Below, piece after piece: positions 20,979 to 54,085 of a DNA stretch of 64,000 nt; position 1 is the first letter of the stretch; every line of letters starts with the position of its first letter. The stretch spans positions 124,001 to 188,000 of the forward strand of contig CAMDNE010000003.1 of assembly GCA_945902745.1 (NCBI GenBank), in the 5' to 3' direction. The notes under the pieces were generated by a model. It had not been told where the DNA came from. It saw nothing but the letters and a program-made list of their open reading frames with translations, and did not search any database. A program made the position numbers and the translations under genes. Origin of the DNA: Chitinophaga pinensis. GTDB lineage: Bacteria; Bacteroidota; Bacteroidia; Flavobacteriales_D; Crocinitomicaceae.

Positions 20979-21107
20979 GAGTGATGAGTGTGAAGTGTGG
21001 AGTGAGGAGCGAGGAGTGAGGAGTGAGGAGTGAGGAGTGAGGAGCGAGGAGTGAGGAGCGAGGAGCGATGCAATGAGCTTACCGAATTGTGTGGAGTGAG
21101 GAGTGAT
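20979..21107 (+). repeat. Heptamer array A-left: 13 exact 7-bp units plus two more
   Basis: Positions 20979-21069 divide without any slip into 13 units of 7 bases: GAGTGAT, GAGTGTG, AAGTGTG, then GAGTGAG and GAGCGAG in mixture, ending GAGCGAT. Two further units (GAGTGAG, GAGTGAT) sit at 21094-21107, out of phase. The strand is purely purine-rich apart from T and C at fixed positions. It lies between comB and the divergent four-helix-bundle gene. Confidence 0.9.
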
Positions 21108-21202
21108 AAATAATATTTGATAATAACAGAAAAAATAATTCTTGTAATTAAAGAGATAATTTTTCTTAACTTAATAATAGATAAATATAAAAACAATTCA
21201 AA

Positions 21203-21556
21203 ATGAGTGTGTTACGTGATAAAAGCTACAAGTTTGCATTAGATACAATTTTGTTGAGCAAAGAATTAATTGAAAAGAAAGAATATGTATTAAGCAGGCA
21301 ATTACTGAGATCAGGAACGTCTATTGGTGCAAATATTAGAGAAGCTGGCAGCGCACAATCGAAACGTGATTTCATTCATAAATTATCAATTTCTCAAAAA
21401 GAATGCGACGAATCATTATATTGGCTTGAACTTTTAAAAGACAGTTATTGCATTAATCAACAGCAGTTTGAGTCAATGCATGTGCAAGCAAATGAAATTT
21501 TTAAAATGTTAAAAAGTAGTATTATTACCGCTAGACAAAACCTTAATCAAAATTGA
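21203..21556 (+). CDS. Four-helix-bundle protein (S23/IVP family)
   Basis: 117 residues. It has the family signature LLRSGTSIGANIREA (residues 34-48), followed by KRDFIHKLSISQKECDE and YWLELL. Relatives are encoded in intervening sequences of 23S rRNA genes, and the Avd proteins of diversity-generating retroelements share the fold; stand-alone copies are common in Bacteroidota without known role. No reverse transcriptase, template repeat or rRNA is near. The gene lies between inverted heptamer arrays (20979-21107 and 21601-21629), which suggests a unit that moved together. Start ATG at 21203 follows an AT-rich leader with no clear Shine-Dalgarno site. Confidence 0.88.
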   Translation: MSVLRDKSYKFALDTILLSKELIEKKEYVLSRQLLRSGTSIGANIREAGSAQSKRDFIHKLSISQKECDESLYWLELLKDSYCINQQQFESMHVQANEIFKMLKSSIITARQNLNQN

Positions 21557-21600
21557 TTTTTTTGCAAACAATCATTACTCATCCAATAAATTAGAAAAAA

Positions 21601-21629
21601 ACTCCTCGTTCATCACTCTTCACTCGTCA
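21601..21629 (-). repeat. Heptamer array A-right, inverted relative to A-left
   Basis: Read on the minus strand, the array starts inside the TGA stop of the DUF3817 gene (21629-21627) and continues with units GAGTGAA, GAGTGAT, GAACGAG and part of a fifth. The units are the same type as the array on the other side of the four-helix-bundle gene but in opposite orientation. Confidence 0.78.
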
Positions 21630-21923
21630 CTGAGCAGTTTTCTTCAAAAGCTTCCAATCGGCCCAAAAAGTCATAAATGGGATAAGTGACGCAATCAAAA
21701 GAATTGCTGCAGTTTTGGTTGAATATTTGCGGTCAAAATAATTTAGAGCGACCCATAAACAATATGCTAAAAATAAACCTCCATGGATGATTCCAACAAC
21801 ATAATTAGGTCCTTTGATTTCCATCATATATTTCAAAGGCATTGTTAGTCCAAATGAGATGTATGAAATTCCTTCTAGTATTGCGAGTAATCGCAATTGT
21901 CCGTATTTAGTTTTTAAATTCAT
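21627..21923 (-). CDS. DUF3817 small membrane protein
   Basis: 98 residues with three predicted membrane helices (about 10-32, 42-62, 72-90). The pattern LRLLAILEGISYISFG and VVGIIHGGLF matches DUF3817 (YdzA-like). The function is unknown. The gene lies 6 bp after the stop of the GNAT gene, so the two form one operon. Confidence 0.87.
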   Translation of the reverse strand: MNLKTKYGQLRLLAILEGISYISFGLTMPLKYMMEIKGPNYVVGIIHGGLFLAYCLWVALNYFDRKYSTKTAAILLIASLIPFMTFWADWKLLKKTAQ

Positions 21924-22467: not shown

Positions 22468-22523
22468 GGGATTCGGAATTTGGGATTCGGGATTCGGGAT
22501 TTTTAATTAATAACTTGTAATGC
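22468..22523. repeat. Heptamer array E with GGGATTC units
   Basis: Positions 22468-22502 are five clean 7-base units: GGGATTC, GGAATTT, GGGATTC, GGGATTC and GGGATTT. The 7-base pattern continues with TTAATTA and ATAACTT. It sits between the pseudouridine synthase stop and the GNAT start. Confidence 0.82.
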
Positions 22524-24354: not shown

Positions 24355-24912
24355 ATGATAACGTATATTTTAATTTTAAGAGGAATTAATGTTGGCGGAC
24401 ATCGATCAATAAAAATGACAGATTTAAAAATTCTATTGTCTAGTTTAGGCTTTATGAATATCCAAACCTATATTCAAAGTGGAAACATCGTTTTTCAATT
24501 TGCTGAAACAAGTGAGAAAGTACTTGAAGAAATGATCTGTTCGGCCATTAAAAAACAGTATGATTTTGATGTTCCAACAATGGTGAAAGGTATCACCGAA
24601 ATGAAAGAGATTGTGGCTAAAAATCCCTATTTGAAAGATGAATCAAAGGATATTTCTCATTTGCATGTCACTTTTCTAGATGATATTCCGGCTCAAGAAA
24701 TACTCAACACACTCGCAAGTGGTGATTATAAATCTGATGAATATACATTGGTTGGAAAAAACATCTACGTCTATTGCCCGAATGGTTATGGAAAAACCAA
24801 ACTCACTAATACTTTTTTCGAAAATAAATTGAAAGTTGCAGCAACGACAAGAAATTGGAAAACAACGAATGAATTAATAAAGATGGCAGAGAAAATTGAA
24901 ATTAGTTGTTAG
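24355..24912 (+). CDS. DUF1697 family protein
   Basis: 185 residues, no membrane segment. The N-terminus carries the family pattern LRGINVGGHRSIKM (residues 8-21), then YIQSGNIVF, and the C-terminal TRNWKTTNELIKMA. DUF1697 has two ferredoxin-like domains and no known function. The final codons and the stop lie inside a heptamer array (24902-24943), so the last residues come from repeat DNA. Confidence 0.9.
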   Translation: MITYILILRGINVGGHRSIKMTDLKILLSSLGFMNIQTYIQSGNIVFQFAETSEKVLEEMICSAIKKQYDFDVPTMVKGITEMKEIVAKNPYLKDESKDISHLHVTFLDDIPAQEILNTLASGDYKSDEYTLVGKNIYVYCPNGYGKTKLTNTFFENKLKVAATTRNWKTTNELIKMAEKIEISC

Positions 24913-24943
24913 TTGTTAGTTGCGAATTACAAATTACTAGTTT
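24902..24943 (+). repeat. Heptamer array D-left, covering the DUF1697 stop codon
   Basis: Six 7-base units run without slip: TTAGTTG three times, then CGAATTA, CAAATTA and CTAGTTT. The TAG stop of DUF1697 (24910-24912) lies in the array, so the repeat begins in the coding end. Confidence 0.85.
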
Positions 24944-24989
24944 TTGAACCAAAATGATTTGTTGAATTTTCATGATACCAGCGGATTTC

Positions 24990-25047
24990 TAATTAACTCG
25001 CAACTTGTAATTATTTTAACTTGTAACTGTCAACTTGTAATTAGCAA
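24990..25047 (-). repeat. Heptamer array D-right, inverted partner of D-left
   Basis: Units TAATTAA, CTCGCAA and CTTGTAA, a 2-base slip, then CTTGTAA, CTGTCAA, CTTGTAA and TTAGCAA. In reverse complement these resemble D-left (shared AATTACAA). The two arrays are about 46 bp apart. Confidence 0.82.
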
Positions 25048-36367: not shown

Positions 36368-37077
36368 TGCATTTATTCTACGATCCAACAATAAATTCAA
36401 CACATAAAACTCACACGCTTTCAGAAGAGGAGTCGAAGCACGCATGTCGCGTTTTGCGCCTAAAAGAAGGTGATGAAATTGCACTTTTAAATGGAAATGG
36501 TTTTGAGTTTCTTGCACGAATCATTGACTCAAACCCAAAAAAATGCACGGTTGAAATCGTTTCATTTAAGGAAGAGAAAATAAGCCCCTATTCTATTCAC
36601 ATTGCGATTGCTCCAACAAAAAACAATGACCGAATTGAATGGTTTTTGGAAAAAGCTACTGAAATTGGAATTACTGATATTACTTTTTTATTGTGTTCAA
36701 ATAACGAACGTAAACAGACTAAAGATGAACGGTTTGAAAAAATATTGATATCAGCAATGAAACAATCAAAGCGTTTATTCTTACCAAAATTAAATCCATT
36801 AACACCTTTTAAAGAGTTCATTTCAAAATACCCAAAAGGGTTAATTGCTCATTGTTACGATGGTGAAAAAACAACAATTTCTGCCGATTTTAAACCGACA
36901 AATTATCCTATATTAATAGGACCTGAAGGGGATTTTACCTTATCTGAGGTAGAATTAGCATTGCAAACTGGATACAAAACAATATCTTTAGGTGAAAATC
37001 GTTTACGAACTGAGACAGCTGGGTTGTATAGCTGCATGCAGGCGAAGATGTTTTTGGAGGGAGTGTTAAAGGAGTGA
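36367..37077 (+). CDS. rsmE: 16S rRNA (uracil(1498)-N3)-methyltransferase
   Basis: 236 residues. An N-terminal PUA-like domain (SEEESKHACRVLRLKEGD) is followed by a SPOUT domain with the SAM knot: PILIGPEGDFT near residue 180 and SLGENRLRTETA near 205. It methylates U1498 in the decoding region of 16S rRNA. Last gene of the pepT-holA-rsmE run. Its TGA stop lies inside the first unit of a heptamer array. Confidence 0.95.
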   Translation: MHLFYDPTINSTHKTHTLSEEESKHACRVLRLKEGDEIALLNGNGFEFLARIIDSNPKKCTVEIVSFKEEKISPYSIHIAIAPTKNNDRIEWFLEKATEIGITDITFLLCSNNERKQTKDERFEKILISAMKQSKRLFLPKLNPLTPFKEFISKYPKGLIAHCYDGEKTTISADFKPTNYPILIGPEGDFTLSEVELALQTGYKTISLGENRLRTETAGLYSCMQAKMFLEGVLKE

Positions 37078-37141
37078 TGAATGCAAAGTGATGAGTGAAA
37101 AGTGATGAGTACAAAGTGATGAGTTTATAACTTAGAGTTTA
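37072..37141 (+). repeat. Heptamer array B, from the rsmE stop codon to the next start
   Basis: Ten 7-base units fit without any slip, among them GAGTGAT, AAGTGAT (three times), GAGTGAA, GAGTTTA and TAACTTA. The array starts on the rsmE stop codon (37075-37077) and ends 2 bases before the ATG of the DUF4159 gene. The entire intergenic region is array. Confidence 0.9.
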
Positions 37142-51396: not shown

Positions 51397-51419
51397 AGTC
51401 CTTTCGGTTTTATGCTCAT

Positions 51420-51660
51420 TCAAATTTCAAACACATAGAAACATAGGTCACATAGTGAATGTCCTAGCATTATGTTCATCGGAGTTAAAACCCGTTTTTT
51501 TTATTCTCTTTCAAATTTCAAACACATAGAAACATAGGACACATAGCTTATTCCCTAGCTTTATGTTCATCGGAGTTAAAACCCGTTTTTTTATTCTCAG
51601 TCAAATTTCAAACACATAGAAACATAGGTCACATAGCTAATTCCATAGCTTTATGTTCCT
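51420..51660. repeat. Three direct repeats of about 90 bp with CACATAG octamers
   Basis: Units begin at 51420, 51511 and 51601 (periods 91 and 90); the third loses similarity after about 60 bases. Each starts TCAAATTTCAAACACATAG and passes through octamer steps (CACATAGA, AACATAGG, TCACATAG). Units one and two end in CGGAGTTAAAACCCG with a T run, a terminator-like hairpin with one bulge. The 382-bp gap between the GT2 gene and 51779 contains no gene. Confidence 0.9.
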
Positions 51661-53941: not shown

Positions 53942-54000
53942 GCGTAGAAATCTGAATTGGAAGAAAGGATTTTAATATTAATCAATTAACATTTTTTAAA

Positions 54001-54085
54001 AAGGTAAAGGGAAGAAGGTAAAAGTAATTTGGTTCTTGTGAAGCAAACTTTTTACTTCTTACTTTTCAATTCTTACTTTTTCCCT
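54001..54085. repeat. Heptamer arrays G, left and right, inverted pair
   Basis: Left array 54001-54028: four units AAGGTAA, AGGGAAG, AAGGTAA, AAGTAAT. Right array 54051-54085: five units TTTACTT, CTTACTT, TTCAATT, CTTACTT, TTTCCCT, the reverse complement type. The right array ends on the TAG stop (54084-54086, minus strand) of the MBL gene. Spacer 22 bp. Confidence 0.85.

What the first reader, a model, noticed from the sequence alone, without database searches (positions are those of the whole stretch)
20979..21629. Four-helix-bundle gene enclosed by inverted heptamer arrays: possible autonomous version of the repeat
A-left (plus) and A-right (minus) carry the same unit type in opposite orientation on either side of a solitary S23/IVP-type protein. 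Inverted pairs D (24902/24990) and G (54001/54051) have the same layout but only 22-46 bp between the arms. This resembles an element with a gene and shorter gene-less relatives. The protein family is small, basic, associated elsewhere with rRNA insertions and with DGR Avd proteins, and has no known role when alone.
Basis: partly seen in the sequence, partly recalled or inferred. Interest (0 to 1): 0.66.

Follow-up and report, generated by a model that had tools for sequence, protein, structure and literature searches.

The report
Small gene between mirrored heptamer repeats
A small protein gene known from insertions in ribosomal RNA genes also sits in ordinary bacterial operons between two mirror-image runs of a seven-base repeat, and the pair looks like one compact genetic element found across several bacterial phyla.

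Summary
The S23/IVP gene (window 21203-21556) is enclosed by inverted heptamer arrays (arm score 42, 0 of 1000 shuffles). This is a family trend: in 56 S23 loci of related genomes the two flanks match as inverted repeats better than those of 861 control genes (median 30.5 v 19) or swapped S23 arms (18), with a period of 7. Units differ between loci; the G-rich strand lies upstream of S23 in 31 loci, reversed in 2. The layout recurs in other phyla and on cyanobacterial plasmids with STRR-like units (8 of 10). Sister species show empty sites, deletion derivatives and gene-less hairpins at the same junctions. The unit changes between species while both arms stay matched, without G.U excess, pointing to DNA-level copying. 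Best reading: a compact S23 element, an intervening-sequence-like unit living in protein operons.

The parts
20979..21108 (+). left (upstream) arm: degenerate heptamer array, unit GAGTGAG/GAGCGAG, G-rich on the S23 sense strand; best-matched part 21022-21052
21203..21556 (+). S23 / 23S rRNA IVP four-helix-bundle gene, 117 aa
   Evidence: PF05635 4.5e-28, TIGR02436 1.3e-30, PDB 2rld 1.2e-28
21601..21631 (-). right (downstream) arm: same unit inverted
   Evidence: conserved in sister genome G081 (by eye)
24899..25047 (.). gene-less repeat D: left heptamer array TTAGTTG; inverted partner weak (16-bp match, 34 of 1000 shuffles as good)
53999..54085 (.). repeat G: A/G-rich v T/C-rich stretches, inverted match not significant
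22468..22503 (.). gene-less single heptamer array GGGATTC (by eye the same unit type as the arms of the S23 gene L052 of this genome)
37073..37124 (.). gene-less array, AGTGATGAGTGCAA (14 = 2 x 7), GAGTGA-like

Best explanation
The feature is a compact two-part element of about 0.65 kb: an S23 gene plus two inverted arms made of a degenerate heptamer array. Shown: the parts occur together in several phyla; arms are matched locus by locus with a preferred polarity; the unit sits mainly in gaps between genes of one direction; sister species lack it, or keep arms with a deleted or absent gene; the gene is under strong purifying selection; and arms stay alike while their sequence changes. Inferred: the arms fold back as a hairpin or cruciform; slippage adds heptamers and template switching copies one arm onto the other, so both drift together; S23 protein binds the G-rich arm strand or the folded arm and makes insertion or upkeep of the unit possible, probably with a host or borrowed enzyme since it has no nuclease motif known to me (recalled, not tested). 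It has the layout of the 23S rRNA intervening sequence (S23 ORF inside a terminal stem), but in protein operons.
For: Flank complementarity v 861 control genes AUC 0.855, intergenic parts only 0.896 (52 v 411); own arms v swapped arms 30.5 v 18. Lag-7 identity 0.412 v 0.314. 41 of 76 long arrays in 1.17 Mb lie within 300 bp of S23 (stretches chosen around S23), 37.7-fold by density. Polarity 31 v 2 of 56, controls 68 v 69 of 297; neighbours codirectional 52 of 57, convergent 0 of 57, v 529 and 159 of 840. Other phyla: own arms 30, swapped 14, control genes 15, polarity 60 v 1. Cyanobacterial plasmids 8 of 10 with 250-bp flanks. comB site: 4 of 23 loci filled, 1 remnant, 13 empty, 5 not scorable. 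sdhA-sdhB: 7 of 25 full, 2 with S23 remnant, 1 downstream side only, 3 gene-less hairpins, 11 clean, 1 not scorable. Concerted arms: same-site pairs at 40-60% S23 identity, own arms beat swapped arms in 130 of 143 (pairs not independent). Median dN/dS 0.08 in 50 pairs. Arm mismatches G.U-type 130 v A.C-type 125.
Against: Only 28 of 56 family loci exceed the control 99th percentile, 18 of 84 in the cross-phylum set (26 of 84 above the swap 99th), and only 28 of 60 S23 genes have an array by the strict detector. One clade of six S23s mostly lacks arms. No pair at different sites is above 75.4% identical, so no recent copy was caught; a few pairs at 55-71% at different or wrongly called sites share a unit (L158/L160, L153/L171, L100/L101), unresolved. 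Site labels change only 25 times on the tree v 71.9 shuffled, so movement is rare. No target-site duplication was established. The window's unit occurs in three sister genomes, two of which have a different S23 at this site. The three gene-less sdhA-sdhB hairpins have another unit than any S23 seen there. In the larger set 4 of 107 S23s do lie between convergent genes.
Confidence: 0.6

Rival explanations
1. S23 is a host regulator resident in operons; the arms are its binding or RNA-processing sites between co-transcribed subunit genes (sdhA-sdhB, fadB-fadA, scoA-scoB, sufB-sufC), tuning their expression.
For: Same junctions in many species, several with one origin per site; dN/dS 0.08; sense orientation with both neighbours in 49 of 57 and 94 of 107.
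Against: Presence is patchy between sister species at the same junction (11 of 25 clean at sdhA-sdhB); unit sequence is not conserved; no G.U excess in arm mismatches; different S23 lineages at one junction.
Confidence: 0.2
2. Heptamer hairpins are primary, made by slippage and palindrome copying without S23, and S23 is a passenger that inserts into such hairpins, as it does into helices of 23S rRNA.
For: Gene-less arrays and hairpins exist; dispersed units do not track the S23 at the comB site; an S23-rich genome (G004) had no array in 99.5 kb sampled.
Against: Arrays are 37.7-fold concentrated at S23 and absent from 372 kb of four S23-less genomes; polarity is tied to S23 orientation, also in the window where S23 opposes both neighbours; the 13 empty comB sites show no array by eye.
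Confidence: 0.17
3. Chance or composition: AT-rich intergenic DNA gives apparent heptamers and inverted matches.
For: Pairs D and G are within shuffle range.
Against: 0 of 1000 shuffles for pair A; 861 and 182 control genes from the same contigs; 0 arrays in shuffles of 30 stretches v 39 real.
Confidence: 0.02

Closest known systems
23S rRNA intervening sequence (IVS) with S23 ORF, e.g. Coxiella burnetii (PMC4990558, passages read)
   Same: S23 ORF enclosed by terminal inverted repeats; the paper calls it a selfish genetic element with a 28-bp terminal stem, excised by RNase III
   Different: here in protein operons, not rRNA; arms are degenerate heptamer arrays that differ between loci
REP-RAYT elements / BIMEs (PMC2817692, passages read)
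   Same: small gene flanked by inverted repeats that are also dispersed without the gene in intergenic DNA; the paper found no multiple copies or moves of RAYT genes
   Different: RAYTs are IS200/IS605-type transposases with catalytic residues and conserved REP sequence; S23 is a four-helix bundle, and the repeat keeps its period rather than its sequence
Heptamer tandem repeats: cyanobacterial STRRs (PMC2670836, one passage), Xanthomonas GGGAATC and Nostoc GGGGA(C/T)T repeats (PMC4692102, passages), TAACTGA repeats of Beggiatoaceae, cyanobacteria and Bacteroidetes (PMC4679880, passages and one section)
   Same: intergenic heptamer arrays; in two Xanthomonas genomes 70 and 75 inverted pairs
   Different: the passages seen do not mention S23; the terms 'helix bundle' and '23S' (PMC4679880) and 'S23', '23S' and 'four helix' (PMC4692102) occur zero times; PMC4692102 says the repeats were generally not associated with mobile elements
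DGR accessory protein Avd
   Same: same protein family by recall; weak PF05635 hit in this genome (L010, 24 bits, below the cut-off)
   Different: L010 shows no heptamer arms by eye; its DGR context is my reading by eye, no RT search was made

Membership tests
S23 / 23S rRNA IVP protein family (PF05635, TIGR02436) | profile match above curated cut-off | tested here: met
   98 bits v 33.8; 105.8 v 24
23S rRNA intervening sequence | located inside a 23S rRNA gene | tested here: not met
   between a 2-phosphosulpholactate phosphatase gene and a DUF3817 gene
23S rRNA intervening sequence | S23 ORF inside terminal inverted repeats | tested here: met
23S rRNA intervening sequence | excision by RNase III | not testable with these tools
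   needs RNA work
REP-RAYT element | gene flanked by inverted copies of a repeat dispersed in the genome | tested here: met
REP-RAYT element | IS200/IS605-type tyrosine transposase | tested here: not met
   only PF05635 found in Pfam at E <= 0.001
Insertion sequence or MITE | transposase and target-site duplication | tested here: inconclusive
   no transposase family in the ORF; duplications not established, alignments at scoA-scoB too rearranged
Diversity-generating retroelement (Avd) | reverse transcriptase, TR and VR beside the gene | not tested
   the two immediate neighbours are not RT; no wider RT search was made
Heptamer tandem repeat class (STRR-like) | intergenic tandem array of 7-bp units | tested here: met

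The most novel reading that the evidence does not exclude
There is a broad class of minimal selfish elements made of a small non-transposase protein and inverted, fast-drifting tandem arrays whose period is set by the protein family: S23 with period 7, and GxxExxY (PF13366) nucleases with CACAGAG-type arrays of period about 10. The long-unexplained heptamer repeats of cyanobacteria, Xanthomonas and Beggiatoaceae are the gene-less or decayed members of the S23 class, and the rRNA intervening sequence and Avd are its specialised branches.
Probability: 0.35. Interest if true: 0.92.

Novelty: new variant of a known kind. Interest (0 to 1): 0.77.

Why it matters
Many genes named 'four helix bundle protein' (587 relatives in one capped scan) have no known role outside rRNA and DGRs (recalled), and heptamer arrays have been described in cyanobacteria, Xanthomonas and Beggiatoaceae without an agent (passages). 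Tying the two together gives both a partner and a test. It would also put the rRNA intervening sequence and the Avd protein into a wider family of elements, and show inverted arms that evolve in concert at DNA level, a natural system for template switching at palindromes.

Tried and rejected
Rejected: chance. Rejected as the main force: selection for RNA pairing between arms, since G.U-type and A.C-type mismatches are equal (130 v 125; caveat: alignments may join different units of an array). Rejected in simple form: each S23 spreads its own unit; both units tested occur in the same four genomes whatever S23 sits at the comB site. Considered: inversion of one S23 at the comB site between G000 and G037; the two S23s are 62% identical while the neighbours are 93-98%, so replacement or separate insertion fits better, though they are sisters on the tree. 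A family meant as a neutral control, GxxExxY, turned out to have inverted repeats of its own with no rise at lag 7: kept as a lead, no longer a negative control. The six-member long-branch clade suspected to be Avd showed no RT among its printed neighbours by eye. Led nowhere: viral contigs gave one relative; phages 2 records; the first alignment was too diverse for the search for related loci. Not done: XCC0516 of Xanthomonas campestris (PDB 2gsc, E 0.034) could not be fetched to see whether GGGAATC arrays flank it. Gene calling in scripts was a greedy longest-ORF rule, so control genes are approximate. Rows dropped: one search scored 56 of 60 S23 hits (flank near an end, or N), 52 for the intergenic version; one search used 106 of 123 loci; one search used 119 of 123; one search scored 84 S23 genes, the number dropped was not printed; one search looked at 10 of 30 records, chosen by me among the cyanobacteria. 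One search compared only 5 stretches per genome. Two stretches (L068, L069) were fetched because they hold arrays, which raises the gene-less count.

Full report
Observation. The window is part of G000, a 3.46 Mb genome in 54 contigs. At 20979-21065 TRF finds 12.4 copies of a heptamer; the periodic stretch reaches about 21108 by eye. At 21601-21631 the same unit lies inverted. The match of the two arms scores 42; the best of 1000 dinucleotide shuffles scores 32. Between them lies a 117-aa gene of PF05635/TIGR02436, closest in the PDB to 2rld.

Own genome. There are six PF05635 matches. By eye the four strongest are each enclosed by inverted heptamer-like arms, each with a different unit, the fifth (L009) weakly, and the sixth (weak, 24 bits, below the cut-off) not at all.

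Family test. PF05635 matches at E <= 0.001 in 54 of 60 genomes of the taxonomic family. I fetched 60 stretches, 58 of them around S23 genes, and found 60 S23 hits with the window. For 56 loci with full flanks, the match of the upstream flank with the reversed downstream flank has median 30.5, against 19 for 861 other genes of the same stretches and 18 for swapped arms of S23 loci; 28 of 56 exceed the control 99th percentile and 29 of 56 the swap 99th percentile; the intergenic-only AUC is 0.896. Identity at lag 7 is 0.412 against 0.314, with secondary rises at 8, 14, 15, 16 and 21. So about half the loci are individually clear and the shift is general.

Polarity and place. Upstream intergenic flanks have G-C skew +0.300 and downstream -0.122; 31 loci have the sign pair plus/minus, 2 the reverse, 23 neither; controls 68 and 69 of 297. 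Neighbours are codirectional in 52 of 57 (controls 529 of 840; Fisher p 5e-6) and convergent in 0 of 57 (controls 159 of 840). In the larger set of 123 loci, both neighbours are known for 107: 98 codirectional (94 with S23 in the same sense), 5 divergent, 4 convergent. The window locus is unusual: S23 opposes both neighbours, yet its arms keep the polarity relative to S23 (skew +0.69 and -0.56); of the other two such loci outside the odd clade, L092 keeps it (+0.30, -0.16) and L100 does not (-0.42, -0.04).

Recurrent junctions. In 123 distinct loci (family sample plus genus), 75 fall in 15 sites where both neighbour families recur, and 4 more in two classes with one neighbour undetermined. By my reading of the proteins the largest are fadB-fadA, sdhA-sdhB, imuB-dnaE, kynU-kmo, ssb-ssb, scoA-scoB and sufB-sufC; 'comB' is likewise my name for the phosphatase gene (names recalled, not searched one by one). 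On a tree of 119 S23 proteins the site labels need 25 changes against 71.9 shuffled; nine listed sites need one change, while sdhA-sdhB needs 3, fadB-fadA 6 and ssb 2 (few columns, many weak forks). So S23s are mostly inherited in place, move rarely, and different lineages reach the same junction.

Presence and absence. At the comB-DUF3817 site of the window, of 23 loci from 22 genomes, 4 carry S23 (G000 and G081 with one S23 and orientation; G037 and G061 with another S23, 61-62% identical, in the other orientation and with another unit, although the neighbours are 93-98% identical to G000's), 1 (G051) has arms around what I read by eye as the 3' end of S23, 13 are short empty gaps, and 5 could not be scored. 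At sdhA-sdhB, of 25 loci: 7 full, 2 with S23 remnants between arms, 1 with only the downstream side, 3 gene-less inverted heptamer hairpins of another unit, 11 short gaps of 33-49 bp (two of them, G069 and G074, with a short TTAGAAATTA-like repeat), 1 unscorable. At scoA-scoB, of 6 genomes asked, 4 matched: G000 and G080 full, G037 a gene-less inverted repeat of another unit with a local duplication, G061 only the S23 3' end and downstream arm. The classes were assigned by eye from printed gaps.

Concerted arms. For 264 pairs of loci at the same site, the match of a locus's own two arms stays at 27-32 from 40% S23 identity upward (18 and 24 for the 16 pairs under 40%). Same-arm similarity between species falls from 118 (S23 90% or more identical) to 78 (80-90%), 41 (70-80%), 31 (60-70%) and about 20 (40-60%). 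Own arms beat swapped arms in 130 of 143 pairs at 40-60%, in 52 of 77 at 60-80%, and not clearly above 80% (8 of 12, then 2 of 16), as expected if the unit is replaced slowly while the arms stay matched (pairs are not independent, and some same-site pairs may be separate insertions). Mismatches inside arms are as often A.C-type as G.U-type (125 v 130, expected share 0.507, 82 loci), which argues for copying at DNA level, not for selected RNA pairing. The S23 gene itself is under purifying selection, dN/dS median 0.08, range 0.02-0.49, 50 non-independent pairs.

Gene-less arrays. In 1.17 Mb, 76 long arrays of period 7 or 8 were found, 41 within 300 bp of S23, 35 elsewhere; 28 of 60 S23 genes have one; none appeared in shuffles of 30 stretches against 39 real. 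The stretches were chosen around S23, and two because they hold arrays. Units are lineage dialects: GAGTGAGGAGTGAG and TTTAGAACTGATAGTTT occur in G000, G037, G061 and G081 and, of the other 22 genus genomes, in none and one. Four genomes without PF05635 matches gave 0 arrays in 372 kb; four with S23 gave 5 in 367 kb, of which G004, with 8 S23 matches, gave 0 (p 0.03; G+C differs for three of the four S23-less genomes).

Other phyla. Of at least 588 candidate places the tool kept the best 80. In 84 S23 genes there, own arms score 30, swapped arms 14, 182 control genes 15; 18 of 84 exceed the control 99th percentile and 26 of 84 the swap 99th; lag 7 is 0.433 v 0.348; polarity 60 v 1. Clear cases are in records titled Terriglobia, Omnitrophota, Planctomycetaceae, Atribacterota, Ignavibacteriae, Clostridia and Betaproteobacteria, all MAGs, so binning errors are possible; most of the 80 are Bacteroidota. 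Low scores exist too (for example L390, L391, L383). On plasmids, 30 records carry S23, mostly cyanobacteria. Of 10 fetched, 8 have arms scoring 30-63 with 250-bp flanks and 2 do not (18, 19); cut at the annotated neighbours, 6 of 10 score 30 or more. Own median 52.5, swap median 18, swap maximum 59 because some records share units such as TAGGGAG, GGGAACA and AAAAGGG. Calling these STRR-like rests on recall and one passage. Two S23 genes lie between cas6 and cas4.

A second family. PF13366 (GxxExxY), meant as a control, is also flanked by inverted repeats (median 29, 13 of 27 scored loci above 30.4; 30 fetched, 3 without a readable ORF), by eye of CACAGAG type, lag 7 not raised (0.293), lag 10 highest (0.324). 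The 91-bp array at 51408-51658 of the window looks like that type.

Literature. Ten searches of the held library were made; only listed rows were seen, 15 of 40 in the last. By titles, abstract starts and term counts, no listed paper joins S23 and heptamer arrays. I looked at passages of eight papers: PMC4990558 describes the rRNA element; PMC4679880, PMC4692102 and PMC2670836 describe heptamers; PMC2817692 RAYTs; in PMC5524665 and PMC8700078 the passages only list 'four helix bundle protein' genes; PMC11270868 notes the 23S_rRNA_IVP ORF in rRNA insertions of CPR bacteria. Few subscription papers and few preprints are held, so novelty is provisional.

Reading. The data support one unit of S23 plus inverted heptamer arms. 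That it moves by its own protein is not shown; rare moves, replacement at one site and remnants make past movement likely. Likeness to the rRNA intervening sequence is of layout; membership fails on location. Likeness to REP-RAYT is of logic; membership fails on the transposase.

Noticed in passing
window 51408-51658: 91-bp tandem repeat with CACATAGAAACATAGGTCACATAG motifs; by eye it resembles the inverted CACAGAG/CTCTGTG-type repeats that flank GxxExxY (PF13366) genes in this family of bacteria.
   Followed up: partly
L394-L423 (PF13366 loci): GxxExxY nuclease genes are flanked by inverted repeats of their own kind, period about 10; 13 of 27 scored loci exceed 30.4: a possible sister class to S23 elements.
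   Followed up: partly
L431, L432: S23 gene with heptamer arrays between cas6 and cas4 on plasmids of Pseudanabaena galeata and Anabaena sp. 90 (type I-D is named only in the Anabaena record).
   Followed up: partly
L108 10286-10798: An ORF that looks like an ORF6N/KilA-N protein (by eye) lies directly beyond an S23 gene, with the same array unit again on its far side.
   Followed up: no
L178, L179, L181, L182, L185, L191: Long-branch S23 clade (MFDFEKLDIYKKAK type) that mostly lacks arms (4 of 5 scored at 17-24, L182 at 44); L185 lies beside what looks like a translated tRNA region.
   Followed up: partly
L010 (G000:C1:220778): Weak S23/Avd-like gene beside repeated 'TATTGGAGTTCTACGGAG' segments that look like a DGR template and variable repeat; no reverse transcriptase search was made.
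   Followed up: no
L051, L056, L134, L135 arms: Arms at the imuB-dnaE site contain a second motif like GCTCCGCTGGGAGA / GCGAAGCGGTC mixed with the heptamers.
   Followed up: no
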